Of a stretch of DNA of 35,514 nt, positions 12,278 through 33,603 are shown one piece after another. This DNA is from Bacteroidales bacterium. Its GTDB lineage: Bacteria > Bacteroidota > Bacteroidia > Bacteroidales > VadinHA17. The stretch is taken from the NCBI GenBank assembly GCA_025454795.1, contig JALONT010000030.1, forward strand, positions 1-35,514. The letters are read 5' to 3'. The position numbers and the translations under genes are program-made. The stretch's first letter is position 1. The number at the start of each line of letters is the position of its first letter. Under the pieces are notes generated by a model that was not told the origin of the DNA, did no database searches, and was given only the letters and a program-made list of their open reading frames with translations.

Positions 12278-12316
12278 TACTTGATAACCAGAACTAAAAC
12301 TATGATCTATCTATCA

Positions 12317-13813: not shown

Positions 13814-13838
13814 GATATCTGGATTTTTTGTTTTGCGA

Positions 13839-16800
13839 TTATAGTGTCAAATTTACTCCTGCACTTAACATTCTTACCTGCGGATAATTCATTCGATCGA
13901 TTCCCGGATTAAATACACCTCCTTCGAATTCAGGATCCACACCCCGGTATTTAGTGATTGTGAAGAGATTTTGGGCGCTCAGATACACCCTAAGCTTTGT
14001 GAATTTTTCAAAGGGTATCGAGTAGCCGATTTGTAAATTCTTCAGTCTTAAATAAGCCCCATTCTCAACAAATCTAGTGCTGGGAAAGTTATTGGCTACA
14101 TCGCCGTAAACAGGCCTGGGGTCTGTACCCACTCCATCAATATATGGATCATAATCTATAGAATAATTGGTGATGTGACTGGCATTCAATTCATAATAAT
14201 AGGAATTGTAAACATCTCGTTTCGTAACTCCCTGGAAGAAACCATATAGATCAAATCCCTTCCAACTGACTTCGAAATTCAGGCCGTACTGCATCTTGGG
14301 GATCGGATTCCCCCATATCTGACGGTCATCATCGAAATTGATGTTGCCATCCGGTTCTCCGGTCAAATTACCATCTTCGTCCCTGCCATTTACATCCCTG
14401 TAGCGGGCATCACCAATGACAGGTACCTTACCGGTGATGGTTACCCCATCCATATTGATCTGATCCTGACTGGTATATATCCCCAGATATTCAACGAGAA
14501 AGAGTTGTCCCAGAGGTAAACCCAGTCGCGAGGTGGAATTAGTTCCCGGGAATTCATCAACCCCAAAGGGAAGATAGGTGATCTCGTTGTTGGTATGGAA
14601 GGCATTGGTAGTTACACTGAAACTGAAATCACCAATGACCCTCCGGTAAGTAAGACTTGTTTCCCATCCATTTCTTGTCATATTTACCGCATTCACTGTC
14701 ACTGTAGTAGCATCTGCAGGTCCTATGGTTCCGGGTACAGGAACAGCGACAAGTAGGCCCTCCAGGTTCCCCATATAGTAATCGGCGTTAAATTCAAGCT
14801 GGCCCTCAAATAGCCTCAGGTCCAGGCCTAAATTGGTTTCCCTTAGTGTCTCCCAGGAGATGTCCCTGTTGGACAAGGCTCCCCTTGTCGTACCGATCAC
14901 CAATGCACCTTCAGGCCCCATGTTATAATTCACACCATCAGCCACTCCGGATCGAACAAGTGATTGATAAGCATAATCTCCAATACTCGAGTTTCCAACT
15001 ACACCATACCCTGCCCTGATTTTCAGATCCGAGATAGCATCCAAAGTAAAGAAATCCTCCTTGGCAATGTTCCAACCTGCCGATACTGAAGGAAAGGTAC
15101 CCCAGCGGTTTTCGGAGGCAAATTTTGAGGACCCATCGCGCCTCAGAATGGCAGTTAAAAGATATCTGTCTTTAAATTTGTAAGTAAATCTTCCGAGATA
15201 CGAGCGGATAGCAGAACTGAATTGACCACCTTTAGATTGAGAGGATGCTGAACTGGCACTAATTTCCCAGAAATAGGGCTCTTTCAGATGGCCGTCTAAG
15301 GTTTCGGTCTCCTGATATGCCCCATTTATCTCCTGTTCTGCATGTGTTACCATTGCAGAAATCTCATGGTCCCCAAAGGTTTTCGTATAAGTAAGACGGT
15401 TCTCGAGGGAGATCGTGGAGGATTCTCCGCGTTCTTGAAAAAGTCTTGACTGAATATCGGACCCCCCCATCCGGATTAGGAATCGCGGATTGTATGCTTT
15501 GGATTGGTTGAAGTTTGAATTGACTCCTACACTGAAATGATATTTCAGACCATCCAGGATCTCAAGATCCAGGTAGACATTGCTCAGGATTTGGGTTTCC
15601 CTGTCCATGGATTTCATTAAATCCTGCTGAGCCACAGGGTTGGGTACAAAAGTGTATGCAGCTTCCACGTCTCCATATCCATACCCACTTGTTTTATAAG
15701 GATCATAGACAGGAATAATAGGCAGATTGCTGACAGTATAGGTTGCAATTGTTCCCGAATATTGTTTGGACAGGCCTGAGATTCTTGACCTGCTTACCGA
15801 TAGGTTTTGCCCAATGATCAACCGTTTCCAGGGTGTAAAATCAGTATTCACTCTGGCACCTATCCTGTCAAAAAGTGATCCCTGGATGGTACCTTCAGTG
15901 TATGTATTGTTCAACGAGATATAGGCATTGTATTTTTGGCTGCCACTGGAAACACTCAGATTGAAATCCTGCATCAATGCCTGCTTATTAAACACCTCTT
16001 CCTGCCAGTCGGTATTTACATCAGGATCAAAATCCACATCAGCCTTGCTCATCCGGGGAATTCCACTGTTATCATGAGCCACATTATTGATCCTGGCAAA
16101 TTCATAATTATCCGTTACATCAATTCTCCCCGGAATGCGCTGCAATCCCACCTGTGCAATCGCATTCACAACTGGGTTTCCTGATTTCCCCTTTTTAGTG
16201 GTAATCACCACCACTCCGTTTGCGGCCCTTGAACCGTAGATGGCGGAAGAAGATGCATCTTTAAGGATCTGTACCGATTCAATATCGTACGGATTTAAAT
16301 TTGGGCTGTCGTCGGTGAGGACCCCATCCACCACATAGAGTGGATTGTTGCCACCAAAGAAAGAAGTCCCCCTAATCTTTATGTCTCCAGTGCCACCCGG
16401 TTGTCCCGAGGTTACCACAGATACCCCGGCTACTTGCCCCTGGAGCCTGTCGGTCAGGTTTGTAGAGGTACTACGGTCCAGATCCTCAACATTTACCGCC
16501 GACACAGAACCTGTCAGATCGCTTTTCCTCTGGGTCCCGTAGCCAACTACTACGACTTCTTCCAACGATTCGAGATCCAACAAAAGTGAAACATTTATTT
16601 GTGTTCTGCGCCCAACGGTTTCATCCAGGCTTATATATCCAATAAAACTAAAGCTAAGTATAGCATCTTGTTCGGTAACTGCTATTGAGTAGTTACCGAA
16701 GGCATCGGTAAAGGTACCCTGGGTCGTCCCCTTTATTATCACGGTTGCACCGCTCAAAGGTTCCTTATTTTCATCGGTGACTGTTCCTGTTATCACGGTC

Positions 16801-16871
16801 TGTGCAAATAACGGTGACAGGCCAAGGAACATCAGCACGATTATACTGAATAATCTATGTAGTCTTTTCAT
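13839..16871 (-). CDS. SusC/RagA-like TonB-dependent receptor (locus 2)
   Basis: A complete SusC-family outer-membrane transporter of about 1010 residues. MKRLHRLFSIIVLMFLG to LFAQ is a clean signal peptide. A carboxypeptidase-regulatory-like domain (GTVTDENKEPLSGATV), Ton-box-like EEVVVVGYG, the plug with ILKDASSSAIYGSRAANG, and a barrel ending in AGVNLTL follow. The start at 16871 is chosen for the signal peptide. The frame also has an ATG at 16892 whose A overlaps the upstream stop as TAATG; that would add MTLNKEE and couple translation to the preceding lipoprotein gene. It pairs with the SusD gene 25 bp downstream. Substrate is unknown, with peptides a possibility given the peptidase gene after SusD. 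Confidence 0.92.
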   Translation of the reverse strand: MKRLHRLFSIIVLMFLGLSPLFAQTVITGTVTDENKEPLSGATVIIKGTTQGTFTDAFGNYSIAVTEQDAILSFSFIGYISLDETVGRRTQINVSLLLDLESLEEVVVVGYGTQRKSDLTGSVSAVNVEDLDRSTSTNLTDRLQGQVAGVSVVTSGQPGGTGDIKIRGTSFFGGNNPLYVVDGVLTDDSPNLNPYDIESVQILKDASSSAIYGSRAANGVVVITTKKGKSGNPVVNAIAQVGLQRIPGRIDVTDNYEFARINNVAHDNSGIPRMSKADVDFDPDVNTDWQEEVFNKQALMQDFNLSVSSGSQKYNAYISLNNTYTEGTIQGSLFDRIGARVNTDFTPWKRLIIGQNLSVSRSRISGLSKQYSGTIATYTVSNLPIIPVYDPYKTSGYGYGDVEAAYTFVPNPVAQQDLMKSMDRETQILSNVYLDLEILDGLKYHFSVGVNSNFNQSKAYNPRFLIRMGGSDIQSRLFQERGESSTISLENRLTYTKTFGDHEISAMVTHAEQEINGAYQETETLDGHLKEPYFWEISASSASSQSKGGQFSSAIRSYLGRFTYKFKDRYLLTAILRRDGSSKFASENRWGTFPSVSAGWNIAKEDFFTLDAISDLKIRAGYGVVGNSSIGDYAYQSLVRSGVADGVNYNMGPEGALVIGTTRGALSNRDISWETLRETNLGLDLRLFEGQLEFNADYYMGNLEGLLVAVPVPGTIGPADATTVTVNAVNMTRNGWETSLTYRRVIGDFSFSVTTNAFHTNNEITYLPFGVDEFPGTNSTSRLGLPLGQLFLVEYLGIYTSQDQINMDGVTITGKVPVIGDARYRDVNGRDEDGNLTGEPDGNINFDDDRQIWGNPIPKMQYGLNFEVSWKGFDLYGFFQGVTKRDVYNSYYYELNASHITNYSIDYDPYIDGVGTDPRPVYGDVANNFPSTRFVENGAYLRLKNLQIGYSIPFEKFTKLRVYLSAQNLFTITKYRGVDPEFEGGVFNPGIDRMNYPQVRMLSAGVNLTL

Positions 16872-16891
16872 TTCTTCTTTATTTAAGGTCA

Positions 16892-17443
16892 TTAGAATAT
16901 CTGGTTTTTGGCAAAATCGAGAACTCCGCACCGTACCGTGATCGATGCTCCATCGAATCCTTCATAAGAAAAGGGGGCTCCGTTTTGGTTTAGACCCAGA
17001 AGTACTGTAATATCCTGGAAATCAAACATTGGGAACCAAGTGAGACCTTTAGCATTCACAATGACCTTAAATTCAGTGGATGTAACATTTCCTTCAATCC
17101 CATCGGTAGCTGTGACCTTAACCGTTGAAGACCCTGCTCCAACTTCAGTAATTTTGAGGATAGAACCATTTAACGTGATTTTGACAACAGCATTATCGCT
17201 GTTAGTAGCAGTATATTTAATTAAGTCACCCTCAACATCAAATATATACTGATTTAAATTTAGTTCGTAAGTTCCGAAACCCTGGGTCAGCAAAACATCC
17301 TCGATGGGCTTTGATACTTTCGGTGGATTGTTTCGGATCTCAACATCCGCAAAATCCGGTGAAAATTCCTCTCTGCAAGCATTCATGGATATAAGAATCA
17401 CCATGCCTGCGAGCATATGAATCATTGCAATAAATCTTTTCAT
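16892..17443 (-). CDS. small Ig-like/cadherin-like lipoprotein preceding SusC
   Basis: A 183-residue predicted lipoprotein: the signal ends in SMNAC with Cys23. Residues 38-135 look like one Ig/cadherin-like beta-sandwich repeat (NNPPKVSKPIEDVLL, FDVEGDLIKYTATNSD, GAGSSTVKVTATDGIEG), a fold common in surface adhesion and glycan-binding proteins. The last 50 residues match nothing I recognise. It is the first gene of locus 2, and its stop overlaps a possible SusC start (TAATG), so the two are surely co-transcribed. A role as a surface accessory or substrate-capturing protein for the SusCD pair is inferred from position only. Confidence 0.75.
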   Translation of the reverse strand: MKRFIAMIHMLAGMVILISMNACREEFSPDFADVEIRNNPPKVSKPIEDVLLTQGFGTYELNLNQYIFDVEGDLIKYTATNSDNAVVKITLNGSILKITEVGAGSSTVKVTATDGIEGNVTSTEFKVIVNAKGLTWFPMFDFQDITVLLGLNQNGAPFSYEGFDGASITVRCGVLDFAKNQIF

Positions 17444-17486
17444 AGTTAGGAAGTTTAATTTATTATTGAGTTTAGTAATTACTGAT

Positions 17487-17518
17487 CAAAATTATGCTAT
17501 TTTTATTATACTTACAAA
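17487..17518 (-). promoter_or_regulatory. Bacteroidota promoter, repeat unit 1 (gene-proximal)
   Basis: On the minus strand TTTG (17518-17515) is followed after exactly 20 bases by TAATTTTG (17494-17487). This fits the Bacteroidota primary sigma consensus TTTG, about 19-20 bases, TAnnTTTG. Transcription would start near 17480, giving a leader of about 37 bases to the ATG at 17443. It is the best-placed of the three copies. Confidence 0.6.
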
Positions 17519-17569
17519 CATTAAAAAAGAAAGTTACTGTATTTTAAATTGAGTTTCGCAATTACTGAT

Positions 17570-17601
17570 CAAAATTATGCTAATTATTTTATAATTAAAA
17601 A
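17570..17601 (-). promoter_or_regulatory. promoter-like site, repeat unit 2 (degenerate -33 box)
   Basis: The equivalent positions in unit 2 read TTTT then, after 20 bases, TAATTTTG. The -7 box is perfect but the -33 box has lost its G, so this copy should be weaker or inactive. Confidence 0.35.
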
Positions 17602-17652
17602 CATTTTAGAAAAAAATTACTATATTTTAAACTAAGTTTAGTAATTACTGAT

Positions 17653-17684
17653 CAAGATTATGCTAATTATTTTATACTTACAAA
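17653..17684 (-). promoter_or_regulatory. promoter-like site, repeat unit 3 (one -7 mismatch)
   Basis: In unit 3 the boxes read TTTG, 20 bases, TAATCTTG. The -33 box is intact and the -7 box has a single T-to-C change. A start here would give a leader of about 200 bases through the two downstream copies. Confidence 0.4.
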
Positions 17685-17716
17685 CTTCAAAAAAGAAAGT
17701 TACTATATTTTAAAAA

Positions 17717-17983: not shown

Positions 17984-18388
17984 ATGATATCCACATTTAC
18001 CTGCCTGCATTGTTGTTACACATATCCATCCCATCCCTGTGTAAAAGATCAAAAATATTGTAATGTTAAAGAATGCCGTAAAGCAAGTAGACGCGCCTGG
18101 AAGAAGAAAAATCGCGCTACAAATAAATCCTATCGGCAGCAGTGTCTGAATCATCAGAAGAAGTGGCGTGAGCATCGTCCGGCCCATCAATACCAGAGAG
18201 AATACTGCGAGAGTCGTCCCGATTATGAAAGGCGCAATCGTGAGGTCGCTTCTGAGATCAGGATGGTCACACTTACAAGTAGCCATGCGCGAGCACTGAT
18301 ACGGTTGCCGCGCGGCAACCAGTTGAAAGTTGCCCGTGTCATTACCACTTTTGGTCTTAGCAGCCCCCTTGTTCACATACCAGATTAA
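17984..18388 (+). CDS. small Cys-rich, basic protein (putative zinc-binding), function unknown
   Basis: A 134-residue ORF, convergent with the S51 peptidase gene. The N-terminus has CLHC, then VKDQKYCNVKECRKASRRAW, a CxxC...CxxxxC arrangement that could bind zinc. A strongly basic repeat-like region follows with WREHRPAHQYQREYCESRPD. I recognise this pattern (CPHC, then RVKxQxYCxxxxCQxARxxxW, YRxxxPxYxxxNRE) from uncharacterised small proteins in several phyla, often near mobile DNA; I cannot name a function. The homologous part seems to end at RRNRE, and the last 45 residues look unrelated, so a frameshift or truncation is possible. It appears more GC-rich than its surroundings and contains an 18-bp perfect palindrome. 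Confidence 0.5.
   Translation: MISTFTCLHCCYTYPSHPCVKDQKYCNVKECRKASRRAWKKKNRATNKSYRQQCLNHQKKWREHRPAHQYQREYCESRPDYERRNREVASEIRMVTLTSSHARALIRLPRGNQLKVARVITTFGLSSPLVHIPD
18303..18320. repeat. 18-bp GC-rich perfect palindrome
   Basis: GGTTGCCGCGCGGCAACC is its own reverse complement and lies inside the Cys-rich ORF. It is the most GC-rich palindrome noticed in this AT-rich window. There is no following T-run, so it is not an obvious terminator. Confidence 0.6.
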
Positions 18389-18473: not shown

Positions 18474-19250
18474 TTAGAGTTCCGCCAACGGAATTATATC
18501 TCCATCCTCAAAGGCATCAATTTTTATTTCACCTTCTATCACTTCAACACGCAAAACATACGAATTTCCAACAATTTTGTACTCGTTACCGCAAACAACG
18601 ATAGCAGTCCCCTCATCAATACCGTACCCTATCAGTTCTGGATGAATTCGAACAGCAGCGATAAGCCTGGAAATTCGATTTCTTTTTAGAAAGTGTTGAT
18701 CTATGATAGCACCAGGTAGCAACTCCAGTCCGGTCGAGATTTTTGGCTCATTACCTCCTCCTCCTATCATAACCCTAGACTGTATTGCTGCCCCAGCCGA
18801 GCTTCCGCCAATAACTCCACCGCGTTGCAGTAGTTGATACAATTCCGTTTCTACGGGTGTGCCAATATAGGCGTCGGCAATTTTGTTTTGTGAACCCCCG
18901 CTGAACCAAACTGCCGTTGCTGTTCTTAATGGCTCTGAGAACTCGGTAGTTGATGCGACTTCCCGGTCGTTCGTGTGCAGAACAGTAATGTTAAGGAATC
19001 CGCGAGAATGCCAATTATCCTGGATTTCTTCAACATCCATTTCATCACCAGAAGCGGTTGGAATTACTACAAGCTTTGCAACTGGCCCTGTTAATTTAAG
19101 AAATTCCTTGAACATTGAATCGGGCAAAGCACCCCCGCCAATAAATAATTTTGGTGCAGACTTAACATCCTGACCACTCGCCGTTGAGTTAAACGCTGGA
19201 CTAACAATTAATGTCAGGACCATCAATAATACTGATAGAACTTTTCCCAT
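18474..19250 (-). CDS. secreted cyanophycinase-like peptidase, family S51
   Basis: A 258-residue protein with a signal peptide ending near STASGQ (residues 23-27), so exported. It has the class I glutamine-amidotransferase-like fold of family S51: IGGGALP at 37-43, the WFSGGSQNK segment, the nucleophile elbow GGSSAGAA with Ser151, DQHF with His186, and GYGIDEGTAIVV with Glu213. S51 covers cyanophycinases, which cleave beta-Asp-Arg bonds, and PepE alpha-aspartyl dipeptidases; the DQHF and DEGTA blocks favour the cyanophycinase side. It is last in the leftward peptide/amino-acid run, 182 bp after an M14 peptidase. It may free aspartyl or isopeptide-linked amino acids outside the cytoplasm; its true substrate is not known. 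Confidence 0.82.
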   Translation of the reverse strand: MGKVLSVLLMVLTLIVSPAFNSTASGQDVKSAPKLFIGGGALPDSMFKEFLKLTGPVAKLVVIPTASGDEMDVEEIQDNWHSRGFLNITVLHTNDREVASTTEFSEPLRTATAVWFSGGSQNKIADAYIGTPVETELYQLLQRGGVIGGSSAGAAIQSRVMIGGGGNEPKISTGLELLPGAIIDQHFLKRNRISRLIAAVRIHPELIGYGIDEGTAIVVCGNEYKIVGNSYVLRVEVIEGEIKIDAFEDGDIIPLAEL

Positions 19251-19432: not shown

Positions 19433-20962
19433 TTAGTTTATGAATGATACTATTCTTTCAATAGGATACATTTTACCTTCCTGCAAGTATTGTGCAAAGC
19501 GGTATTGCAATCCGCTATTGAGGGAAACAAAACCCCATGATGACTGAGGTTCAAGCAAAAGAGGAATTAATTTCAGTGCGGGTTGTTTCGTTTTCACTAC
19601 GATACAGTTTTCAGGAACTTCTGCAACTTTTCTAATCACTTTTACATCAACAAATTCAACTGTTTTGTCTTCTTCGATCATTTTTGATACATGGTTGATA
19701 AAGTACTGCTCTATTTCAGCCTTACGAACTTTACTGGTTTTTTCAAACTCAATTTGATGTCTTTGAAGCAACTCAATCAGCTTGGTTTCATCAGCACTAA
19801 AAACATAAGCTTCGGGTAGAGTAACACTTTGAATCGTTTTAACCAATGCATAAAAGTTCTTGAATTGCTTAACCTCATGATGCCAGTTATTCAGGTTGAA
19901 GACCGGATAGTTAATGACCGGATTCTTTTCATCTTTAAAATAATCCATTCTGATACCAATTTCACTTCCAACATAATTTTCGGTAAGAAGTTTCTTGCGT
20001 GCTGTTTTAACAATAGACATCATTTCAGTATTGTTTTCAGCAACCGTTTCTAAAAATGAAAGGAAGGCAACCTGTTGACTATAAGTACGACGTTCGATGT
20101 TTGTAATTAAATCTCCGTATCTTTTGCCCTCTATTATAAATGATAATGTATTATAAATTCCAAAACTTTGGCGGCCATCATTAATATTGATAGTGCTATA
20201 TCTGATTCTATTATTCTCAAAGGGTGATCCTACAACATATTCATGAAATCTTACACCTGCATTAATAACTTTTTTACCGAAGTCAGGGATAAAAATATTA
20301 CTTGAGAATTCCCTGATATTCTCGTCAATATTTAAGTTTGAATTCCCACCTAACATTTCCTCGGCATCTTTTATTATACCTTGGCTAACCCAGTCTTTTG
20401 TAATAGCATTAAATTCATGTATATCAAGGGTAATTTCGGGTTTCCACTTTTGAAATAGCTGATGAACAGCTTGTGTTTCCGGTTCACTTAGTATTACATA
20501 ATTTCGGTTTAAATCCACATCATTGGCATTTTGCCTTTGTCCCAATTCTCCACCATCAATATTCACCGATGGAACAAGGGCAATATCCATTTTGGAGAGC
20601 AAATTAGGTTTTTCGTTGATGAGTTGCCGTGCAACAATAAGTGCGGCTTCTTTTCCAGAAGGTTCGTTGCCATGTTGTTGACAAATAACCATAACCAAGG
20701 GTTTGGTATCTCTTTGATTACCAAAATCATTTTCGGAGAAATACAAGATTGGGATTTTTTTCCCGCTAGCTGCCGATCCGATATAATCCATCTTTACCTG
20801 ATTACTTGTTTGCACCAATTCTTGCAAATAATTAATCATCTCCTGGTAAGAAGTAAGTTTTGTAAAATTTGATTTTTCTAAATCGGTTTTTAAATTGCTT
20901 TGCGCCACTAACGATAAATTCAAAATCATCAAACAGATTGGCACTAAATTGATTTTTTTCAT
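19433..20962 (-). CDS. secreted M14 family zinc carboxypeptidase
   Basis: A 509-residue exported protein (signal peptide to about LVAQ, residue 21). M14 blocks: CQQHGNEPSG with zinc-binding His and Glu, VNIDGGELGQRQNANDVDLN then RNY with the substrate-binding Arg, DIHEFNA with the third zinc ligand, and FIIEGK with the catalytic Glu. The C-terminal part from about 380 (LPEAYVFSADETKLIELLQR) aligns with the end of the 806-residue M14 protein encoded at 9553-11973, so the two are paralogues; this one has no LamG-like insertion. It lies between an aspartate aminotransferase and an S51 peptidase on one strand. It likely supplies amino acids from peptides to the downstream catabolic enzymes. Confidence 0.87.
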   Translation of the reverse strand: MKKINLVPICLMILNLSLVAQSNLKTDLEKSNFTKLTSYQEMINYLQELVQTSNQVKMDYIGSAASGKKIPILYFSENDFGNQRDTKPLVMVICQQHGNEPSGKEAALIVARQLINEKPNLLSKMDIALVPSVNIDGGELGQRQNANDVDLNRNYVILSEPETQAVHQLFQKWKPEITLDIHEFNAITKDWVSQGIIKDAEEMLGGNSNLNIDENIREFSSNIFIPDFGKKVINAGVRFHEYVVGSPFENNRIRYSTININDGRQSFGIYNTLSFIIEGKRYGDLITNIERRTYSQQVAFLSFLETVAENNTEMMSIVKTARKKLLTENYVGSEIGIRMDYFKDEKNPVINYPVFNLNNWHHEVKQFKNFYALVKTIQSVTLPEAYVFSADETKLIELLQRHQIEFEKTSKVRKAEIEQYFINHVSKMIEEDKTVEFVDVKVIRKVAEVPENCIVVKTKQPALKLIPLLLEPQSSWGFVSLNSGLQYRFAQYLQEGKMYPIERIVSFIN

Positions 20963-21084: not shown

Positions 21085-22278
21085 TTACCTCAGCTTTGCA
21101 AGTGACTCTTTCATCCTACGGCAAGCCTCAATCAGTTCTTCATCGGATACAGAATAAGAAATCCGGATGCAGTCAGGTGCTCCGAATGCTTCGCCACCCA
21201 CAACTGCAACATGAGCATCCCCTAGAATATACAAGGTAAGGTCAGTTGAATCCTTTATTAAAGCATCTCCTTTTCTTTTACCAAAGAAATAACTTGCCTC
21301 CATAAATACATAGAATGCTCCCTGCGGAACAATGACCTTGAATCCTTTGATATCAGAAAGCAAGCTGCAGACCAAATCCCTTCTCTTCAGGTAGGCTGCT
21401 TTCATTTTTTCCTTTGAGTCAGACTTTGATGTAATTGCAGCAAGGGCAGCTCTCTGTGCAATGGATGAAACTCCCGATGTAAACTGACCCTGGAGTTTGT
21501 TTACGGCTTTCGCCAGCCATAACGGGGCTCCGATATATCCTATTCTCCAGCCTGTCATAGCATATCCCTTCGATACACCGTTTACTGTGATGACTCTGTC
21601 AAATATAAAATCAAATGAAGCCATACTGACGTGTTTCCCTGAAAAGGTGATATGCTCATATATTTCATCAGATATTACAAAAACACCTTCGTACTTTTCA
21701 ACTACTCTTGCAATAGCTTCCATCTCATCCCTTGTATAAACCATTCCGGTTGGATTTGATGGTGAGTTAAACAGGATCGCCCTCGTTTTTGATGTAATAG
21801 CACTTTCCAACTGATCAGGAGTAACCTTGAAATCATTCTCAATCGTAGTCTTCAATACGACCGGCTTTCCTTCAGCAAATATTACCTGGTCATAATAGCT
21901 AACCCAGTAGGGAGCCAGGATAATAACTTCATCGCCAGGGTTGATTATACTTAGAATCACATTGATAAGTGAGTGTTTCCCGCCGGCTGATACAACTATC
22001 TGATCAGGAGAATATTCCAGGCCATTCTCATTTTTAAACTTTTCTGAGATGGCTTTTCTCAGATCAAGGTATCCGGGAACAGGTGGATAGAATGAGTAGT
22101 TGTCATCAATTGCTCTCTTGGCTGCTTCCTTTATGTCGTCAGGAGTATTAAAGTCGGGCTCTCCTGTACAAAGGCTAATTACATCAATCCCGGCAGCCTT
22201 CAGATCGCGGCTCTTCTGAGCCATTTCTAGAGTTTGCGAGACAGAAATTGATTTAATTCGGTCTGATAAATATTCCAT
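21085..22278 (-). CDS. aspartate aminotransferase family (class I, PLP)
   Basis: A 397-residue cytoplasmic fold-type I aminotransferase of the Ib aspartate aminotransferase type, full length. Visible blocks: LCTGEPDFNTPD at 36-47, SPSNPTG with the PLP-contacting Asn175, SDEIYEH, and NGVSKGYAMTGWRIGY with the Schiff-base Lys237; RISYS near the C-terminus holds the carboxylate-binding Arg. The family transfers the amino group of aspartate (and relatives) to 2-oxoglutarate. In mammals, aspartate aminotransferase also converts 4-hydroxyglutamate to 4-hydroxy-2-oxoglutarate, the substrate of an aldolase like the one encoded at 25034-25930, so a role in that route is attractive. Gap to the transporter upstream is 110 bp, same strand. 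Confidence 0.88.
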   Translation of the reverse strand: MEYLSDRIKSISVSQTLEMAQKSRDLKAAGIDVISLCTGEPDFNTPDDIKEAAKRAIDDNYSFYPPVPGYLDLRKAISEKFKNENGLEYSPDQIVVSAGGKHSLINVILSIINPGDEVIILAPYWVSYYDQVIFAEGKPVVLKTTIENDFKVTPDQLESAITSKTRAILFNSPSNPTGMVYTRDEMEAIARVVEKYEGVFVISDEIYEHITFSGKHVSMASFDFIFDRVITVNGVSKGYAMTGWRIGYIGAPLWLAKAVNKLQGQFTSGVSSIAQRAALAAITSKSDSKEKMKAAYLKRRDLVCSLLSDIKGFKVIVPQGAFYVFMEASYFFGKRKGDALIKDSTDLTLYILGDAHVAVVGGEAFGAPDCIRISYSVSDEELIEACRRMKESLAKLR

Positions 22279-22388
22279 GGTTTATAATATTTTAATAATA
22301 ATAAATGAACTGCTGCCATTGCCATAATTGAAGCTATTCTTTTCACCATATTTAATTGTTGAATCCATTTTCCCTCTGTTTCTTAATA

Positions 22389-23618
22389 TTATCCCTTTAC
22401 ACCTGAAAAAACATCCCTGTCCATATCATTTAAGCGGGAACTGATAACTGCTGTTCCAACTAAATCGCCAGTCACATTGCAAGTCGTGTGTGCAATATCA
22501 ATCAGAGGCCAAATAGCTGCCAGTACTGGAACCAATGTTAAGGGAAGGTTCATTGTCTGAAGCAAAATGGTTGCCATTACAATTCCGGCACCTTTTATAC
22601 CGGCTGTTCCGATAGAAAGAACCAGCCCAAGAAAAATGAACTGAAGAATGTTGGATGATGTAATTGGCATGTTATAAAGATTCGCAGCAAACACAGCAAT
22701 AATACCTATCGCTGCAGCCATACCGTTCATATTTACAGTTGCACCCAATGGAAGTGTGAAACCATATATTTTTTCGGATGCCCCTAAATTGCTATGTGCA
22801 ACTCTCATCGCTTCCGGCAGGGTTGCGCTACTTGATGTAGTGCTTGCTGCGACAAGCATTGCAGGGGAGATATTCCTGTAAAAACGCATTACGCTAAGTT
22901 TTCCCCATTTTTTAATCACAATTGGGTAAACAATAGCCAAAATAATAATGATTGCTGTTGTATCGGCTAAAATGAACAGCCCCACTTCGGATAGAATTTT
23001 GGTGACCAAGGTTCCTACCATATTTGCAATTAGTGCAAGAATACCATAAGGTGAGGCTTTCATGACGAATTCAGTTATTTTAATCATTAAATCCGCACCC
23101 TCGTTTATTAGTGTTACCAGGTTCTTTGCTCTTTTCTCCAGAGCCAGTATGCCAATACCAACAATTATTGAAAAAAAGATAATCTGCAGCATGTTTGTGG
23201 TTACCATAGCTTCTATGGGATTAATGGGTATCCATTCCACAATGCTTTCAACAAAATTATAATGGCTGGGTTCGATTTCAACACCAGAGCTTAGGAGGCC
23301 CTGTGCATTCTTCCCCGGCATAAAAATAAGGGCGATAACCACTCCTATTACTGCTGAAACAAGAGATGAGGCAGCATAATAGAAAATTGTCATTCCCCCA
23401 ACCGAGCGAAGGGAACGCAAACTTTCCATTTTTGTCATTCCGCTTATTAATGTAAAAAAAGTTAATGGAACAATGAGCATTTTCAGCAACCTTATAAACA
23501 TATCACCGATAGGTTTTAAAAGGGTTGCTTTTGGTCCCAGGATAAACCCAAGTCCCACGCCAATAATAATGCAGATAAAAATTTGAATGTGAAGCTGCTG
23601 CCTAAACCACCATTTCAT
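22389..23618 (-). CDS. DAACS-family cation symporter (GltP/SLC1-like)
   Basis: A 409-residue inner-membrane protein of the dicarboxylate/amino acid:cation symporter family, full length, with eight hydrophobic segments and two re-entrant loops expected. Family blocks: the Ser-rich hairpin ASTTSSSATLP at 258-268, NMNGMAA at 296-302, and DIAHTTCNVTGD at 374-385. By alignment with GltPh (DMGRTMVNVTGD), the Arg that binds the substrate's side-chain carboxylate is His377 here, and the sodium-site Asp of NMDGT is Asn298. Substrate is therefore unlikely to be plain glutamate, aspartate or C4-dicarboxylate. Its place between two aminotransferase genes suggests import of the amino acid they degrade. 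It lies 110 bp from each neighbour on the same strand. Confidence 0.9.
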   Translation of the reverse strand: MKWWFRQQLHIQIFICIIIGVGLGFILGPKATLLKPIGDMFIRLLKMLIVPLTFFTLISGMTKMESLRSLRSVGGMTIFYYAASSLVSAVIGVVIALIFMPGKNAQGLLSSGVEIEPSHYNFVESIVEWIPINPIEAMVTTNMLQIIFFSIIVGIGILALEKRAKNLVTLINEGADLMIKITEFVMKASPYGILALIANMVGTLVTKILSEVGLFILADTTAIIIILAIVYPIVIKKWGKLSVMRFYRNISPAMLVAASTTSSSATLPEAMRVAHSNLGASEKIYGFTLPLGATVNMNGMAAAIGIIAVFAANLYNMPITSSNILQFIFLGLVLSIGTAGIKGAGIVMATILLQTMNLPLTLVPVLAAIWPLIDIAHTTCNVTGDLVGTAVISSRLNDMDRDVFSGVKG

Positions 23619-23728
23619 AATAAGTACTACTACCTTAAATTATTATATTTCTCCTCCGAATCAATTATACGCAGTAATTACCACATGAAACATTTGATTT
23701 TCGAAAAAAATATTTCTGTATTCAAAAA

Positions 23729-24895
23729 CTACTGATTAAGAATTTCCTGGGCAGCAACTAAGCCAATACCCGGTTTGATTTTATATCCACATGATAATAA
23801 GGCTGATTCTATTGCTGCAACTGACCCTAATATATCGCTCTGGTTTACAGATCCCATATGTCCAATTCTGAAATACTTGGTTTTAATGTCAGGTAATAAA
23901 CCTCCTGCCATAATAATTCCGGCCTTTGTGATTTCCGGCAGCAAGCTTCCTCCCTCAACTCCCTCAGGATAATAGGGTGCTGATAATGTATTAGCTGCAA
24001 CTTCTTCACTTACAGGAATCATTTTTAGTCCCATGGCACTGATTGCTGAACGAAATGCTTTTGCAATCTTCCGATGTCTTTGAAATCTGTTTTCCATACC
24101 TTCTTTAAGAATAATTTTTAAGCTGGTTTCAAGTGCGACAACCAGATTTACTGCCGGAGTTCCAAAATACGATGGTTTCCGTGCCTCATACGCTTCCATA
24201 ACCGGCAGCCAATTCCCCCAGTCGGCATAATAATTCCCAACAGGAGTTTTCCTGTTTTTCCACGCTTCAATCGCATTTTGGGAGGCTACCAACAGAGCAA
24301 GCCCCGGAGGAACGCCAATCGCTTTTTGTGAGGCGGTTAGAACAATATCAATTCCCCATTCATCCTGACGGATCTCTTCGCCGGCTACAGAGCAAACTCC
24401 ATCCAAAATAGTTAATACCTTATATTTCTTACCTAATTCACCAAATGGTTTGGGGTCATTCAGAACAGCTGTGGAAGTATCAACGTGGGTAAAGGTAAGT
24501 AGTTTATAGCTCTTCGATTTAAGCTTCTCTTCTACCTTGTCTACAGGAACAACTTCTCCTAGCGGCGCTTTCAAAATATCTACATTTGCACCATATCTTT
24601 TTAGTAGCTCAGCATACCTTTCTCCGAAGTATCCAGTTGAAATGACCAGGGCATTATCTCCAGCTTCAATTAAATTTGAACCAGCCAAATCCATTGCCAA
24701 TGTTCCAGTGCCGGCAATAATAAATGGTTGTCCTGAAGGAGATTGCCAGACTTTCCTCATTAATTCCAGGGAATTTCCAAATGAATCTATAAAATCCGGT
24801 GCAACATGACTTGTTGTTGGAATACTCATTGCCAACATTACTTCAGGTTCAAATTCTATCGGCCCTGGAATCATCAATAATTTTCTTGCTTTCAT
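23729..24895 (-). CDS. alanine-glyoxylate aminotransferase (class V, PLP)
   Basis: A 388-residue class V aminotransferase. PGPIEFEPEV at 10-19, TSHVAPDF at 28-35, GTGTLAMDLAGSNLIEAGD, THVDTSTAV at 136-144, LDGVCSVAGEE and ASQKAIGVPPG (Schiff-base Lys191) match eukaryotic and fungal AGX1-type alanine-glyoxylate aminotransferases, as does KTPVGNYYADWGNWLPVM. These convert glyoxylate plus alanine to glycine plus pyruvate; some relatives use serine as donor. It sits directly downstream of the 4-hydroxy-2-oxoglutarate aldolase-like gene, whose product would be glyoxylate, so the neighbours fit a detoxifying handover. Serine-glyoxylate or serine-pyruvate activity cannot be excluded from sequence. 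Confidence 0.85.
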   Translation of the reverse strand: MKARKLLMIPGPIEFEPEVMLAMSIPTTSHVAPDFIDSFGNSLELMRKVWQSPSGQPFIIAGTGTLAMDLAGSNLIEAGDNALVISTGYFGERYAELLKRYGANVDILKAPLGEVVPVDKVEEKLKSKSYKLLTFTHVDTSTAVLNDPKPFGELGKKYKVLTILDGVCSVAGEEIRQDEWGIDIVLTASQKAIGVPPGLALLVASQNAIEAWKNRKTPVGNYYADWGNWLPVMEAYEARKPSYFGTPAVNLVVALETSLKIILKEGMENRFQRHRKIAKAFRSAISAMGLKMIPVSEEVAANTLSAPYYPEGVEGGSLLPEITKAGIIMAGGLLPDIKTKYFRIGHMGSVNQSDILGSVAAIESALLSCGYKIKPGIGLVAAQEILNQ

Positions 24896-25033
24896 TCTGT
24901 TAAAATTTTCTATATTGTCAATTAAACCCTTTTCTTCTAAAGGATCCTGTTTATAAATTGGTAATAAAAATGATAATAATTCAGGATACTCAAATTTTGG
25001 TTACACTAGAAAATGCAATTTTATCGGTGAAAC

Positions 25034-25930
25034 CTAAACTACTTTTTTAAGATTGCAATCATTCAATAGTTTTATTAATTCATTCTTTATTTCCTTTTTT
25101 ATTGGAAGCATTGGTTTTCTTGGAGGCCCTCCGTAGTAACCCAAATAATCCATTGCTTCTTTTAAAGCAGGTACTCCCCATTTCCCGGTAACAGCAAGAT
25201 TTAAGGAAATCACTTTAAGCTGCATTTCACGAGCCTGAGTTAAGTTGCCTTCTGAAAAACTCTTGTAAATTTCAATACATTGCTCAGGAGCTATATTTGC
25301 CAGAGACACTATACCTCCGATAGCACCCACAGATAATGCAGGGAGAAGAAACCCTGCAGAGCCAGCCAGGACTTGAAACTCAGGTTTTACCCTTTGCCTG
25401 ATATCTCCCATTTTAACCAAATTCCCTCCTGAATCTTTAATCCCCATAATATTAGGATGAGCTGAAATGGCATGGATAGTATCAGCGTCCATATCCATTC
25501 CTGAATTAGCCGGCATATTGTATACTAATACCGGGATTGTCGAATTATCAGCAACCGTAAAATAGTGTTTTACTAATGCCTCCTTGGTCATAGCGCTTTT
25601 AAAATAAAAAGGATTTAAAACCAAAACAGCATCAGCTCCTGCTTCAGCAGCCATTTTTGACAGATTTATCGTTTCCCTTGTGGATTGGCCACCAGTTCCG
25701 GCAAGCATAATTTTATCTGAAGGTATTGCTTTTCTTGCAGCTTCATAAACTGATAGTTTTTCAGCATCTGAAAGATTTACTAACTCACCATTTGATCCTA
25801 ATGATAGGAAGCCTGCAAGATCGTATTGACTTAATTTTTCAATATTGGCTTGCATATTGCCTAATGACAGATTCTCATTGCTATCAAATGATGTAGCTAA
25901 AGGCGCAAATATTCCGTTTAATTTCAACAT
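25034..25930 (-). CDS. 4-hydroxy-2-oxoglutarate aldolase-like enzyme (DapA/NAL superfamily)
   Basis: A 298-residue class I aldolase of the DapA/NAL superfamily. Schiff-base Lys165 (GIKDSGG) and Tyr137 (YNMPANSG) are present. Instead of the GTTGE of dihydrodipicolinate synthases it has GSNGE at 45-49, giving Ser46 and Asn47, as in human HOGA1; Ser167 after the Lys also matches. Long blocks agree with HOGA1 as I remember it: FQVLAGSAGFL, HPNIMGIKDSGG, and a C-terminal DYLGYYGGPPRKP. HOGA1 splits 4-hydroxy-2-oxoglutarate into pyruvate and glyoxylate. It is the first gene of the leftward run, next to the glyoxylate-using aminotransferase and divergent from an Lrp-type regulator. Other DapA-superfamily activities are possible, but DHDPS itself looks unlikely. 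Confidence 0.8.
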   Translation of the reverse strand: MLKLNGIFAPLATSFDSNENLSLGNMQANIEKLSQYDLAGFLSLGSNGELVNLSDAEKLSVYEAARKAIPSDKIMLAGTGGQSTRETINLSKMAAEAGADAVLVLNPFYFKSAMTKEALVKHYFTVADNSTIPVLVYNMPANSGMDMDADTIHAISAHPNIMGIKDSGGNLVKMGDIRQRVKPEFQVLAGSAGFLLPALSVGAIGGIVSLANIAPEQCIEIYKSFSEGNLTQAREMQLKVISLNLAVTGKWGVPALKEAMDYLGYYGGPPRKPMLPIKKEIKNELIKLLNDCNLKKVV

Positions 25931-26132: not shown

Positions 26133-26555
26133 ATGACAGATGTTTTGGACACAAAAATATTAGACATATTGAAAGCCAATGCACGGGCTTCTTATGCAGA
26201 TATCGGAAGACAAGTTAATCTTACTGCCTCTTCAGTGAGAGAACGCATTCTACGATTAGAGAATGAAGGTTTGATAACAAAGTATACTGTAGAATTAAAT
26301 CAGTCAAGACTGGGTTATAATCTGGAAGCTTTTATTCTCATCAATTTGTATACCGGTAATCTTAAGCCATTCCTTTCCATTGTTAAGAATTTTAAAGAGG
26401 TGCAACAGTGTTATCGGATTACTGGGGCACATAACCTGCAACTAAAAGTATTATTACGAGACCAAGCCCATCTCGTTCAACTTTTAGATAAATTAATGGT
26501 TTACGGAGATACTACAACTCTACTTATACTCACTGAGGTCATTAACCAAAAGTGA
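26133..26555 (+). CDS. Lrp/AsnC family transcriptional regulator
   Basis: A 140-residue Lrp/AsnC protein of near-usual length. Residues 1-60 form the winged helix-turn-helix (DTKILDILKANARASYADIG, then LTASSVRERILRLENEGLI), and 65-140 form the RAM ligand-binding domain (ILINLY, then YRITGAHNLQLKVLLRD, then LLDKLMVYGDTTTLLI). Such proteins bind amino acids and switch nearby metabolic genes. It is transcribed divergently from the aldolase-aminotransferase-transporter run with a 202-bp shared intergenic region, the classic arrangement for a dedicated regulator. The effector might be the amino acid carried by the DAACS protein; that is inference. Confidence 0.9.
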   Translation: MTDVLDTKILDILKANARASYADIGRQVNLTASSVRERILRLENEGLITKYTVELNQSRLGYNLEAFILINLYTGNLKPFLSIVKNFKEVQQCYRITGAHNLQLKVLLRDQAHLVQLLDKLMVYGDTTTLLILTEVINQK

Positions 26556-27324: not shown

Positions 27325-28551
27325 ATGACCCCAACCTATAAGAAAATTGATTCAACAATTATGAATAAAATGAATAAAATTCAGGTTCTGAATATTATTC
27401 ATGATAAAAAAATCATTTCACGAGCTGATATTGTCAAGATTACAGGATTGACACCGCCAACTGTATCCAGAATTGTAGAGCAACTCATCAACCAGGATGG
27501 TTTGGTAAAATATATCGGAGTTGGAGATTCCAATGGAGGGAGACCGCCGATTAATATCGCCTTTAACGGAAGTGAAAATTATGTGATTGCGGTTGACCTT
27601 GGAGCTACTTTAATCAGAGGTTTATTGTCAGATTTGAATAACGACATGCAAATGGAGATACAAGTCGCTACAGGCCTGGGAAAAAGCTATGAATCGATTA
27701 TGGACAATGTGGCTAATGTTATTGAACGTTTATTAAATAAAAAAGGCCTGAACAGAGATAAAGTATTAGGTGTTGGTATTGGCATTGCCGGGTTGGTTAA
27801 CATAAAGAATGGAATGGTTGACTTTTCACCAGACTTTGGCTGGGAAGCCATGAATATTCAAAATAGTCTAAAGCAGAGAATCAATCTTCCATTTATCTTT
27901 GATAATTCAACCAGACTAATGGCCCTTGGAGAACTGGACTATGGGCTTGGAAAGAAATACAGAGATTTTGTTGTAATCAATATAGGATACGGAATTGCGG
28001 CCGGAATTGTTATCGATGGCAAAACAGTGTGCGGTTCTAAAGGGAAAGCCGGAGAATTTGGACATATTTTAGTTGATTCAGATACCAATATCAAATGTGA
28101 ATGCGGAGCTTACGGTTGCCTTGAAGCTCTTGCATCAGGAAGACGTATCGCAGCGCTTGGGAAAGAACTTTTTGAGAAAAAAAAATCACAGAAATTAATG
28201 GAACTTTGCAGGAACGACCCTGGTTTAATTGATGCCAAGTTAGTTTTTGAGGCTGCCCGGTCGGGTGATAAGGATGCTAATGAAATACTGGAGACAGTAA
28301 CAAATTACCTTGGCATCGGAATAGCCAGTCTTGTGAATCTTTTGGATCCCGAAGTAATTTTCATGGGTGGTGGAGTCTCTTCTAATGGTGAAATATTTTT
28401 TAAGCCACTTATAAAAGCTATCAAAAGTCATTTAATTTCCAGGGATAAAAAACTTGATATTAAACCTGCAACATTTGCTGATTACGCTACACTCACCGGG
28501 GCCTTTTCCCTGGTAGTAAACAAAATTATCCGGCTTGAATCTCTTCGCTAA
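27325..28551 (+). CDS. ROK family transcriptional regulator (NagC/XylR type)
   Basis: A 408-residue ROK protein with an N-terminal winged helix-turn-helix (MNKIQVLNIIHDKKIISRAD, then ITGLTPPTVSRIVEQLINQD) and a sugar-kinase-like domain from about 85: the phosphate loop VDLGATLIRG, GIGIAGLVN, then the zinc motif GEFGHI...CECGAYGCLEALASG typical of ROK proteins. Such regulators repress sugar catabolic genes and are released by a sugar or amino-sugar ligand. Upstream ATGs (27325) and an internal one (27361) are both possible starts. It sits upstream of the sulfatase genes in the same direction but is separated by a dead transposase, so control of the sulfatases is plausible and unproven. Confidence 0.88.
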   Translation: MTPTYKKIDSTIMNKMNKIQVLNIIHDKKIISRADIVKITGLTPPTVSRIVEQLINQDGLVKYIGVGDSNGGRPPINIAFNGSENYVIAVDLGATLIRGLLSDLNNDMQMEIQVATGLGKSYESIMDNVANVIERLLNKKGLNRDKVLGVGIGIAGLVNIKNGMVDFSPDFGWEAMNIQNSLKQRINLPFIFDNSTRLMALGELDYGLGKKYRDFVVINIGYGIAAGIVIDGKTVCGSKGKAGEFGHILVDSDTNIKCECGAYGCLEALASGRRIAALGKELFEKKKSQKLMELCRNDPGLIDAKLVFEAARSGDKDANEILETVTNYLGIGIASLVNLLDPEVIFMGGGVSSNGEIFFKPLIKAIKSHLISRDKKLDIKPATFADYATLTGAFSLVVNKIIRLESLR

Positions 28552-29737: not shown

Positions 29738-31546
29738 GTGATAAATAATAAATTTGAATTTACCGGAATGCTTCTATTTCCAGCAATCTTATCTCTTGGA
29801 TGTCAAAGCCAATCCATCAAGAGTCAAGATAAACCTAATGTTATTTTCATACTGACTGATGATCAAGGTTATGGCGATCTTGCCTGTCATGGCAACCCAT
29901 GGATCAAGACCCCCAATATTGACAAATTATATTCGCAGAGTGTCCGATTTACTAATTTCCATGTCGGGACAACCAGTTCCCCAAGCCGGTCCGGATTAAT
30001 GACCGGTAATTATTGTAATAAAGTTGGCGCTTGGCATACAGTAAAAGGACGGGAAATTATGGATGCAAACCAGACAACTATTGCAGAAGCATTTAAGGAG
30101 GATGGTTATACCACGGGTATTTTTGGAAAATGGCACCTGGGAGATAATTATCCGTACCGTGCTCAAGATCGCGGGTTTGACGAATCACTGGTTCTGAAAG
30201 GTGGTGGGATTGGTAATGCTCCCGATTATTGGGACAACGATTATTTCGATGATACTTACTTTCACAATGGGAAACCTGAAAAATTCAATGGCTATTGTAC
30301 TGATATTTGGTTCGACAATGCCATGAAATTCATCAAGGCTAATAAAGATGAACTGTTTTTCTGTTACCTGTCAACCAATGCACCTCACAGTCCTTATCGT
30401 GTAGCAGAAAAATATTTCAAGCCGTATTTGGATAATGATTCAATTCCAAATCCTGTCTTTTACGGAATGATAGCTAACATCGATGAAAATATTAAAAAAC
30501 TCCGGGAATTTTTAGAAAAAGAAGGTCTTGCAAAGAATACTGTTCTCGTTTTTATGACTGATAATGGAACGGCAGCCGGGGTTAACGTGGATAAAAATGA
30601 GCGGGTTATTCTGGGTTATAATTCGGGTATGAGTGGAAAGAAGGGCTCTACTTTCGAGGGGGGCCACCGGGTTCCGTTCTTTATTTATTGGGAGAATGGT
30701 GGACTGACAGGGGGAAAAGATATCGGGAAACTTACATCGTATGTAGATTTTATGCCAACACTTCTTGATCTGTGTCATATCAAAGTTCCTGATGGGGTCG
30801 AATTTGATGGGAACAGCCTGGTTCCTTTACTGTACCATCCGGAAAAGGCTTGGCCGTCCCGCATCCTTTTCACAGATACCCAGCGGGAATACTACCTTAA
30901 AAAGTATAAAGATTATTGTATCATGACAGACCAATGGAGGCTTCTCAACGGGCGCTTGTATGATATACAGAATGATCCGGAAGAATTCAATGATGTATCG
31001 GCGAATTATCCTGAAGTCGTTACAAAACTTAATGCAGCTTATGAAGTATGGTGGAATAAGGTTAGCATAAATGAAGATAAGGTCAACGCAATATATTTAG
31101 GTTCTGAAAAAGCTACCGAAATTACCTTGTCTACCCACGATTGTCATATTGTTGAAGGCGGTGTTGCCCATTTACAGCGGATGATTCGGCTGGGGGAAGG
31201 CGCCAACGGCGGGCATTGGGTCGTTGAAGTGGTAAAGGACGGCAAATATCAAGTTGACCTTCGCCGCTGGCCGGTAGAGTCGGGTTTGAAACTGAGAGAT
31301 CCTGCTCCGGCAGGAAATCCGGTTCCGGGTGATAAACCTTATCATGAAGGAAAGGCATTGAATATTATCGAAGCCGGTATTAAAATCGGAGAACAGGAAT
31401 TCCATAATAAAGTTACTGATTCAGATGTTTATTCAAGGTTTAACATTGATCTAAAAAAAGGGACCTATGAAATGGAATGTCGTTTTACGGATGCAAAAGA
31501 AATAACCCGTGATGCTTATTATGTGTATGTAAGCTACTTAAAGTAG
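29738..31546 (+). CDS. S1-family sulfatase, Ser-type, lipoprotein
   Basis: A 602-residue family S1 sulfatase that hydrolyses sulfate esters from sugars. The start is GTG at 29738: it gives an n-region with a Lys before the hydrophobic stretch and a lipobox (LSLGC, Cys21); an ATG at 29768 would remove the charge. Metal ligands are in ILTDDQGYGD and FMTDNGTAAG. The maturation motif is SSPSR, with Ser80 to be oxidised to formylglycine. GKWHLGD and GGHRVPF are also typical. The last 150 residues form a separate beta-rich tail (RWPVESGLKLRDPAP) found in some arylsulfatases of this type. It is first of three sulfatases on this strand. The S1 subfamily and sugar target cannot be fixed by eye. Confidence 0.92.
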   Translation: MINNKFEFTGMLLFPAILSLGCQSQSIKSQDKPNVIFILTDDQGYGDLACHGNPWIKTPNIDKLYSQSVRFTNFHVGTTSSPSRSGLMTGNYCNKVGAWHTVKGREIMDANQTTIAEAFKEDGYTTGIFGKWHLGDNYPYRAQDRGFDESLVLKGGGIGNAPDYWDNDYFDDTYFHNGKPEKFNGYCTDIWFDNAMKFIKANKDELFFCYLSTNAPHSPYRVAEKYFKPYLDNDSIPNPVFYGMIANIDENIKKLREFLEKEGLAKNTVLVFMTDNGTAAGVNVDKNERVILGYNSGMSGKKGSTFEGGHRVPFFIYWENGGLTGGKDIGKLTSYVDFMPTLLDLCHIKVPDGVEFDGNSLVPLLYHPEKAWPSRILFTDTQREYYLKKYKDYCIMTDQWRLLNGRLYDIQNDPEEFNDVSANYPEVVTKLNAAYEVWWNKVSINEDKVNAIYLGSEKATEITLSTHDCHIVEGGVAHLQRMIRLGEGANGGHWVVEVVKDGKYQVDLRRWPVESGLKLRDPAPAGNPVPGDKPYHEGKALNIIEAGIKIGEQEFHNKVTDSDVYSRFNIDLKKGTYEMECRFTDAKEITRDAYYVYVSYLK

Positions 31547-31612
31547 TATTTAAAAATACATTTCAAAAACTTACCGATAATTGCGTTAAAAAAATCAATA
31601 AAAATTAATAAC

Positions 31613-33580: not shown

Positions 33581-33603
33581 TGCAAAACCAGTAGCATAAA
33601 ACA

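What the first reader, a model, noticed from the sequence alone, without database searches (positions are those of the whole stretch)
21085..25930. Possible bacterial operon for the lower half of mammalian-type hydroxyproline/4-hydroxyglutamate breakdown
Seen: on one strand, an aldolase with HOGA1-type active-site residues (Ser46, Asn47, Tyr137, Lys165, Ser167), an AGX1-type alanine-glyoxylate aminotransferase, a DAACS transporter and an aspartate aminotransferase, with a divergent Lrp regulator. Known: in mammals AspAT makes 4-hydroxy-2-oxoglutarate from 4-hydroxyglutamate, HOGA1 cleaves it to pyruvate and glyoxylate, and AGT turns glyoxylate into glycine. Inference: the cluster imports and degrades 4-hydroxyglutamate or a related hydroxy-amino acid by the mammalian route rather than the usual bacterial HypD route. 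No proline dehydrogenase or P5C dehydrogenase is in the window, which fits entry at hydroxyglutamate or genes elsewhere.
Basis: partly seen in the sequence, partly recalled or inferred. Interest (0 to 1): 0.75.

Follow-up and report, generated by a model that had tools for sequence, protein, structure and literature searches.

The report
Bacterial version of human hydroxyproline breakdown
This bacterium carries a close relative of the human enzyme that makes glyoxylate from hydroxyproline (a collagen building block), next to an enzyme that would turn glyoxylate into glycine, and many distant relatives have such a pair among proline and hydroxyproline genes, so a pathway best known from mammals probably also exists in bacteria.

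Summary
The aldolase belongs to the HOGA1 clade: human HOGA1 scores 250 bits against 134 for the next protein, 17 of 17 checked positions match human HOGA1, and a 37-row clade holding both has 100/100 support. Its partner is AGX1-type and adjacent in 7 of 13 close loci. Decisive context lies outside the window: of 22 distant loci, 17 have proline dehydrogenase within 8 kb, 14 an AGT of another subfamily, 11 P5C dehydrogenase, 7 HypD; of 63 comparison loci, none. The own genome has proline and P5C dehydrogenases elsewhere, but no HypD and no proline-racemase family gene. So the pathway reading stands, with corrections: the AspAT looks like a housekeeping gene (112 of 146 genomes), the transporter is local and lacks the acidic-substrate arginine, making 4-hydroxyglutamate uptake unlikely, and 10 of 13 related genomes tested also have HypD. 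No activity was tested.

The parts
25034..25930 (-). HOGA1-type 4-hydroxy-2-oxoglutarate aldolase (298 aa)
   Evidence: best solved relative is human HOGA1; in a 100/100 clade with it; 17 of 17 checked positions identical to human HOGA1
23729..24895 (-). AGX1-type alanine/serine-glyoxylate aminotransferase (388 aa)
   Evidence: yeast AGX1 260 bits; adjacent to the aldolase in 7 of 13 close loci
22389..23618 (-). DAACS/SLC1-family symporter; amino-group Asp kept, acidic-substrate Arg replaced by His; substrate unproven
   Evidence: nearest relative in 145 other genomes 36% identical
21085..22278 (-). class I aspartate aminotransferase, probably the housekeeping copy; could make HOG from 4-hydroxyglutamate
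   Evidence: matches in 112 of 146 genomes at 1e-60, on another contig than the aldolase in 6 of 6 other aldolase genomes that have it
26133..26555 (+). Lrp/AsnC-family regulator, divergent; target unproven
   Evidence: no homologue reported in the other loci compared
19433..20962 (-). M14-family peptidase, likely signal peptide (by eye), same strand; role unproven
18474..19250 (-). S51-family (cyanophycinase-like) peptidase, same strand; role unproven

Best explanation
[quoted passage not shown] In this genome it would complete the oxidative, mammalian-type route for trans-4-hydroxyproline: proline dehydrogenase (contig C11) and P5C dehydrogenase (contig C25) make 4-hydroxyglutamate, the AspAT beside the module makes HOG, then aldolase and AGT finish. 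The neighbouring symporter more likely brings in a neutral amino acid, perhaps hydroxyproline as ASCT1 and ASCT2 do, than 4-hydroxyglutamate. Shown here: sequence membership, linkage, and presence or absence of the other genes. Inferred: all reactions, the transporter's substrate, regulation and co-transcription.
For: Human HOGA1 is the best solved relative by a wide margin, with 17 of 17 checked positions identical and a 100/100 clade. Riedel et al. (PMC3188589; passages and introduction) assign Lys196, Tyr168, Ser77, Asn78 and Ser198 to catalysis and HOG binding and lay out the pathway. In 22 distant loci, within 8 kb: PRODH in 17, AGT in 14, P5CDH in 11, Xaa-Pro aminopeptidase in 9, HypD in 7, proline-racemase family in 5; 0 of 63 comparison loci have any (representatives checked). 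The AGTs of the close and distant groups fall in different subfamilies, and one close relative has a GhrA-like glyoxylate reductase directly upstream instead: three kinds of glyoxylate-consuming enzyme beside one aldolase type. Close aldolase and close AGT co-occur in 8 of 146 genomes (12 and 10 carriers; hypergeometric p 5e-9); the 2 AGT-only genomes are cut by contig ends on the aldolase side. 7 of 12 aldolase genomes have aldolase, AGT, PRODH and P5CDH (over cut-off); 2 of these 7, the own genome and G070, have neither HypD nor a proline-racemase family gene.
Against: No activity data. PRODH is common (106 of 146 genomes) and P5CDH is also over cut-off in 3 of 6 genomes tested without the close aldolase (G062, G011, G045), so their presence in this genome says little by itself. 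In 4 of 12 aldolase genomes (74-89% complete) the close AGT and PRODH are both missing; G075, which has the pair and PRODH, has no P5CDH over cut-off. Two HOGA1-clade members among the comparison loci (L024, L025) have none of the pathway genes nearby, and a same-genus group in the clade (L098-L103) sits with a 2-hydroxyacid dehydrogenase and a PfkB-type kinase in the two loci read, with the same active-site letters (neighbours named by eye), so clade and letters alone do not fix the substrate. The co-occurrence p ignores shared ancestry.
Confidence: 0.75

Rival explanations
1. The aldolase works on HOG, but as a clean-up step: PRODH and P5CDH act by accident on hydroxyproline, and aldolase plus AGT or a glyoxylate reductase clear the by-products, while HypD carries the main flux where present.
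For: HypD is within 8 kb of the aldolase in 7 of 22 distant loci and present in 10 of 13 other close genomes tested; HypD gives P5C (PMC11574389 passage), which would not yield HOG.
Against: The window's genome (99% complete) and G070 (98%) have no HypD and no proline-racemase family member, yet keep the module.
Confidence: 0.3
2. It is a sugar-acid aldolase (2-keto-3-deoxy acid type), and the AGT neighbour disposes of glyoxylate derived from glycolaldehyde.
For: DHDPS-family aldolases often act on such substrates (recalled); a clade member in Desulfosporosinus with the same key letters (Ser-Asn, Lys, Ser) follows what reads like a dehydratase of the IlvD/EDD type (by eye); a fucosidase and sulfatases lie in the window.
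Against: Grouping with YagE is rejected; 17 of 22 distant loci put PRODH near the aldolase. Sugar-acid genes near those loci were not searched for with models; none was noticed by eye in the listings (one search was partly cut).
Confidence: 0.1
3. The whole run, with transporter, AspAT, M14 and S51 peptidases, is a peptide or amino-acid scavenging island for an acidic hydroxy-amino acid such as 4-hydroxyglutamate or 3-hydroxyaspartate.
For: One strand, gaps of 110-182 bp; the AGT's best NCBIfam model is BhcA.
Against: BhcA score 246 against a cut-off of 650; the transporter lacks the acidic-substrate Arg; AspAT and transporter were found beside the aldolase in none of the other loci compared.
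Confidence: 0.1

Closest known systems
Mammalian trans-4-hydroxyproline pathway (hydroxyproline oxidase, P5CDH, AspAT, HOGA1, then AGT or glyoxylate reductase)
   Same: The genome has a PRODH-family gene, P5CDH, AspAT, the aldolase and an AGT; the pathway is as laid out in PMC3188589 (introduction). The aldolase is in the HOGA1 clade with identical checked positions.
   Different: Bacterial, aldolase and AGT are neighbours; PRODH is a short bacterial-type protein (303 aa, best model Thermus PRODH, under its cut-off) whose use of hydroxyproline is untested; the AGT scores higher with yeast AGX1 (260 bits) than with human AGXT (152 bits).
[quoted passage not shown]
   Same: Same presumed substrate; HypD lies within 8 kb of the aldolase in 7 of 22 distant loci.
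   Different: No HypD match in the window's genome; HypD makes P5C directly and needs no aldolase.
Epimerase route of other bacteria (4-hydroxyproline epimerase, D-hydroxyproline dehydrogenase, deaminase, ketoglutarate semialdehyde dehydrogenase)
   Same: Same presumed substrate; its deaminase is also of the DHDPS fold (recalled). PMC7883544 passages describe such a cluster in Colwellia.
   Different: The window's genome has no proline-racemase family match; the aldolase groups with HOGA1.
KHG/KDPG aldolase (Eda)
   Same: Also annotated as HOG aldolase (e.g. PMC9162365 and PMC4593210 passages).
   Different: Trimeric aldolase of another kind (PMC3188589 abstract); the window gene is DHDPS-family.

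Membership tests
HOGA1 (4-hydroxy-2-oxoglutarate aldolase, DHDPS-family) | G-S-N-G-E loop, Tyr168, Schiff-base Lys196, Ser198 (human numbering) | tested here: met
   residue roles from PMC3188589 passages
HOGA1 (4-hydroxy-2-oxoglutarate aldolase, DHDPS-family) | Groups with HOGA1, apart from DapA, NanA and YagE | tested here: met
   clade 100/100, 54 rows; DapA and YagE groupings rejected; a tree with human HOGA1 outside the bacterial rows is not rejected, p 0.106
HOGA1 (4-hydroxy-2-oxoglutarate aldolase, DHDPS-family) | Cleaves HOG to pyruvate and glyoxylate | not testable with these tools
   needs an enzyme assay
AGX1-type alanine-glyoxylate aminotransferase | Best solved relative and clade with yeast AGX1 | tested here: met
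   (97/92); yeast AGX1 is a long branch, so the exact sister is less sure
Acidic amino-acid DAACS transporter (GltPh/GltP type) | Arg in TM8 that binds the side-chain carboxylate | tested here: not met
   His in the window; Arg in GltP, DctA, TcyP and 7 of 7 homologues; Glu in SstT; Asp for the amino group kept
Mammalian-type hydroxyproline pathway | PRODH, P5CDH, AspAT, HOGA and AGT in one genome | tested here: met
   and the window
Mammalian-type hydroxyproline pathway | PRODH that oxidises hydroxyproline | not testable with these tools
   PRODH-family gene present; substrate unknown
HypD route | HypD gene in the genome | tested here: not met
   genome 99% complete
Beta-hydroxyaspartate cycle | AGT over the BhcA cut-off | tested here: not met
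   246 of 650 bits; BhcB, BhcC and BhcD not searched

The most novel reading that the evidence does not exclude
A complete mammalian-type oxidative hydroxyproline pathway exists as a bacterial gene cluster (PRODH - HOGA1 - AGT - P5CDH), often beside HypD and proline peptidases as a two-mode (oxidative and glycyl-radical) collagen-peptide island; glyoxylate-removing enzymes were recruited to the aldolase at least twice; and animal HOGA1 is a close relative of, or was derived from, this bacterial lineage.
Probability: 0.5. Interest if true: 0.7.

Novelty: new variant of a known kind. Interest (0 to 1): 0.6.

Why it matters
Hydroxyproline from collagen is abundant, and the bacterial routes usually cited (HypD, epimerase) do not make glyoxylate (recalled). 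A HOGA1-based route would make glyoxylate, the oxalate precursor behind primary hyperoxaluria, in microbes; would give HOGA1 bacterial orthologues to study; and would correct the annotation of these genes, for which the NCBIfam models searched offer only DHDPS-family names.

Tried and rejected
Housekeeping DHDPS: rejected; the own genome has a better DapA at C32 (334 bits against the dapA cut-off of 206; the window protein scores 173, under it; a third paralogue at C74 scores 220), and the tree separates them. Beta-hydroxyaspartate cycle: BhcA score far under cut-off. A fixed four-gene operon: no linked AspAT or transporter found elsewhere. PRODH or P5CDH presence alone as evidence: dropped, both occur without the aldolase. 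Promoter and terminator scan: counts near the shuffled mean, not used. No structure was predicted, because the rivals share one fold.

Literature: searches of an open-licence library gave no title or abstract start, among the rows listed (3 to 20 a search, of up to 815 papers), that tells of a bacterial HOGA1-type hydroxyproline cluster. Seen beyond listings: passages of PMC3188589 (plus its introduction), PMC7883544, PMC11123841, PMC11574389, PMC9162365, PMC5234801 and PMC4593210. The bacterial HOG aldolases named in PMC9162365 and PMC4593210 are of the KDPG/Eda kind in sugar clusters; PMC4593210 also mentions a plasmid cluster that may serve proline and hydroxyproline, with no HOG aldolase named in the passage. 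The two main HypD papers are not held.

Rows dropped: in the aldolase tree 4 odd-length or very divergent rows and 7 near-duplicates were left out before building. The AGT tree holds 11 of the 14 distant-group AGTs and 9 of the window kind. Of the 23 other phylum genomes, 22 neighbourhoods were fetched (G192, whose match is cut by the contig end, was not). Of the 64 loci, L023 was put in the window group and the other 63 served as comparison; they come from a pattern search, some are short or cut at contig ends, and two (L024, L025) turned out to lie in the HOGA1 clade. Part of the output was cut; one search gives gene order for all 22 loci.
Full report
What is there. The window is contig 56 of a 3.29-Mb assembly, 99% complete. 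Gaps are 110-138 bp, and two peptidase genes (M14, S51) follow on the same strand.

The aldolase. phmmer against solved structures gives human HOGA1 at 250 bits, then a DHDPS at 134 bits. At 17 of 17 checked positions the window protein and human HOGA1 have the same letter; E. coli DapA, NanA and YagE differ from both at the positions of Asn78 and Ser198. Riedel et al. 2011 (PMC3188589, passages) give Lys196, Tyr168 and Ser77 roles in catalysis, and Asn78 and Ser198 roles in binding HOG. In a 54-row maximum-likelihood tree a 37-row clade (100/100) holds human HOGA1, 12 window-group rows, 17 distant-group rows, 5 rows of a same-genus group, an Acidobacteria row (L025) and a Desulfosporosinus row (L024), and excludes DapA, NanA and YagE. 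Holding the window group together with DapA (p 2e-91) or YagE (p 0.005) is rejected. Human HOGA1 comes out as sister of the window group (99/95), and human plus distant group is rejected (p 0.02), but a tree with human HOGA1 outside the bacterial rows is not (p 0.106); it is the only eukaryotic row.

The partner. The aminotransferase scores 260 bits with yeast AGX1, 253 with an archaeal AGXT and 152 with human AGXT, and groups with AGX1 (97/92; long branches). Of 146 genomes searched (own included), 12 have a close aldolase (56% or more), and 6 more, all of the same genus, have a 37-40% relative. Ten have a close AGT (62% or more); both occur in 8. The pair is adjacent in 7 of 13 loci: the window, L087, L088, L089, L090, L092 and L097, out of the 12 genomes and L023. 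In G118 the AGT is on another contig and a GhrA-like glyoxylate/hydroxypyruvate reductase lies 12 bp upstream of the aldolase ORF instead (212 bits, under the 403 cut-off). The two AGT-only genomes (G062, G084) end within about 180 bp of the AGT on the side where the aldolase would be. By handle, the close aldolase is in 1 of 62 genomes of the window's genus (its own), 10 of 25 others of the family and 1 of 59 others of the order: patchy, by loss or transfer.

The decisive context. A search of 395 genomes across the phylum with the aldolase profile gave 24 carriers at 1e-75. Of the 23 besides the own genome, 22 neighbourhoods were read. Within 8 kb of the aldolase, proline dehydrogenase lies in 17 (in 15 of these directly upstream, in 2 with one small ORF between; in L203 the two ORFs as called overlap by 4 bp), AGT in 14, P5C dehydrogenase in 11, a Xaa-Pro aminopeptidase in 9, HypD in 7 and a proline-racemase-family gene in 5. 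Some loci also carry a POT peptide transporter or an S37 peptidase. One or two representatives of each kind were checked: PRODH (PF01619 over cut-off; best NCBIfam model Thermus PRODH, under its cut-off), P5CDH (TIGR01236, 785 bits against 614), HypD (NF043068, 1332 against 1100), HypD activase and Xaa-Pro aminopeptidase as best models though under their cut-offs, the racemase-family gene over the Pfam cut-off with trans-3-hydroxyproline dehydratase as best NCBIfam model, under its cut-off. The same scan on 63 comparison loci (the other aldolase-family hits) found none of these genes, and none on 8 loci of own paralogues and the same-genus group. The AGTs of the distant loci form a clade apart from the window's kind. 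So two AGT subfamilies, and in one genome a glyoxylate reductase, stand beside this aldolase type, as expected if its product is glyoxylate.

The rest of the route. In the own genome proline dehydrogenase is on contig 11 (PF01619, 133 bits) and P5C dehydrogenase on contig 25 (731 bits against a cut-off of 614), with no recognisable pathway neighbours by eye. AspAT is the window gene; its nearest paralogue in the genome is 30% identical, and 112 of 146 genomes have a match at 1e-60. In the 12 aldolase genomes it is on the aldolase's contig only in the window, on another contig in 6, and without a match at 1e-60 in 5. It is best read as a housekeeping gene that happens to lie here. HypD is absent here and present in 10 of 13 other genomes tested; the proline-racemase family is absent here and present in 10 of 13 others. 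Seven of the 12 aldolase genomes have aldolase, AGT, PRODH and P5CDH over cut-off; own and G070 have these with neither HypD nor racemase family. Thus the only hydroxyproline route that these searches found in this genome is the oxidative one.

The transporter. It keeps the TM8 Asp that binds the amino group, but has His where GltP, DctA, TcyP and 7 of 7 homologues have the Arg that binds the side-chain carboxylate; the Ser/Thr transporter SstT has Glu there (residue roles partly recalled, and PMC11123841 passages say that an Arg of SLC1A1 confers glutamate specificity). The same passages report that ASCT1 and ASCT2, of the same superfamily, take trans-4-hydroxyproline (Km 17 and 76 uM). A neutral substrate, perhaps hydroxyproline, is therefore likelier than 4-hydroxyglutamate. 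The nearest relative among the 145 other genomes is 36% identical.

What does not fit. Four of the 12 aldolase genomes (G074, G078, G083, G085; 74-89% complete) lack the close AGT and any PRODH match; three of them have HypD, and two (G074, G083) have a distant AGT-family gene elsewhere. Where HypD is present it would bypass HOG, so the aldolase may serve another growth condition or clear by-products. Clade members L024, L025 and L098-L103 have other neighbours. These points keep the confidence at 0.75.

Novelty. The chemistry and each enzyme family are known. A bacterial gene cluster built on a HOGA1 orthologue was not seen in the rows listed by eight searches (an open-licence library only, and the main HypD papers are not held). 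I rate it a new variant of a known kind.

Noticed in passing
L091, L093, L094, L095 (genomes G074, G085, G078, G083): Close aldolase orthologues whose genomes lack the close AGT and any PRODH match, although three of the four have HypD; what feeds the aldolase there is unclear.
   Followed up: partly
L098-L103: A same-genus group of aldolases (37-40% identical to the window's) with the same key active-site letters but another setting: in the two loci read (L099, L100) a 2-hydroxyacid dehydrogenase, a PfkB-type kinase and a SusC gene follow (by eye). Possibly a different substrate.
   Followed up: partly
L024:6681-10894: A Desulfosporosinus aldolase, 47% identical to human HOGA1 and at the base of the HOGA1 clade, lies downstream of what reads like an IlvD/EDD-type dehydratase (by eye); it may show an older sugar-acid role.
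   Followed up: no
window 17465-17714: Tandem repeat, three copies of an 83-bp unit, between the SusC gene and the S51 peptidase gene.
   Followed up: no
window 9553-16931: A SusC/SusD pair and an M14 peptidase on the same strand as the module, a few kilobases downstream; possibly peptide uptake, link to the module untested.
   Followed up: no
window 17984-18388: Cysteine-rich, basic 134-aa ORF on the plus strand, overlapping a minus-strand ORF; may be a mobile-element remnant (by eye).
   Followed up: no
window 29738-35217: Three sulfatase-like ORFs in a row (two checked, the first by eye) behind a ROK regulator (27325-28551), and an alpha-L-fucosidase at 6289-7809: a polysaccharide-degrader setting.
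   Followed up: no
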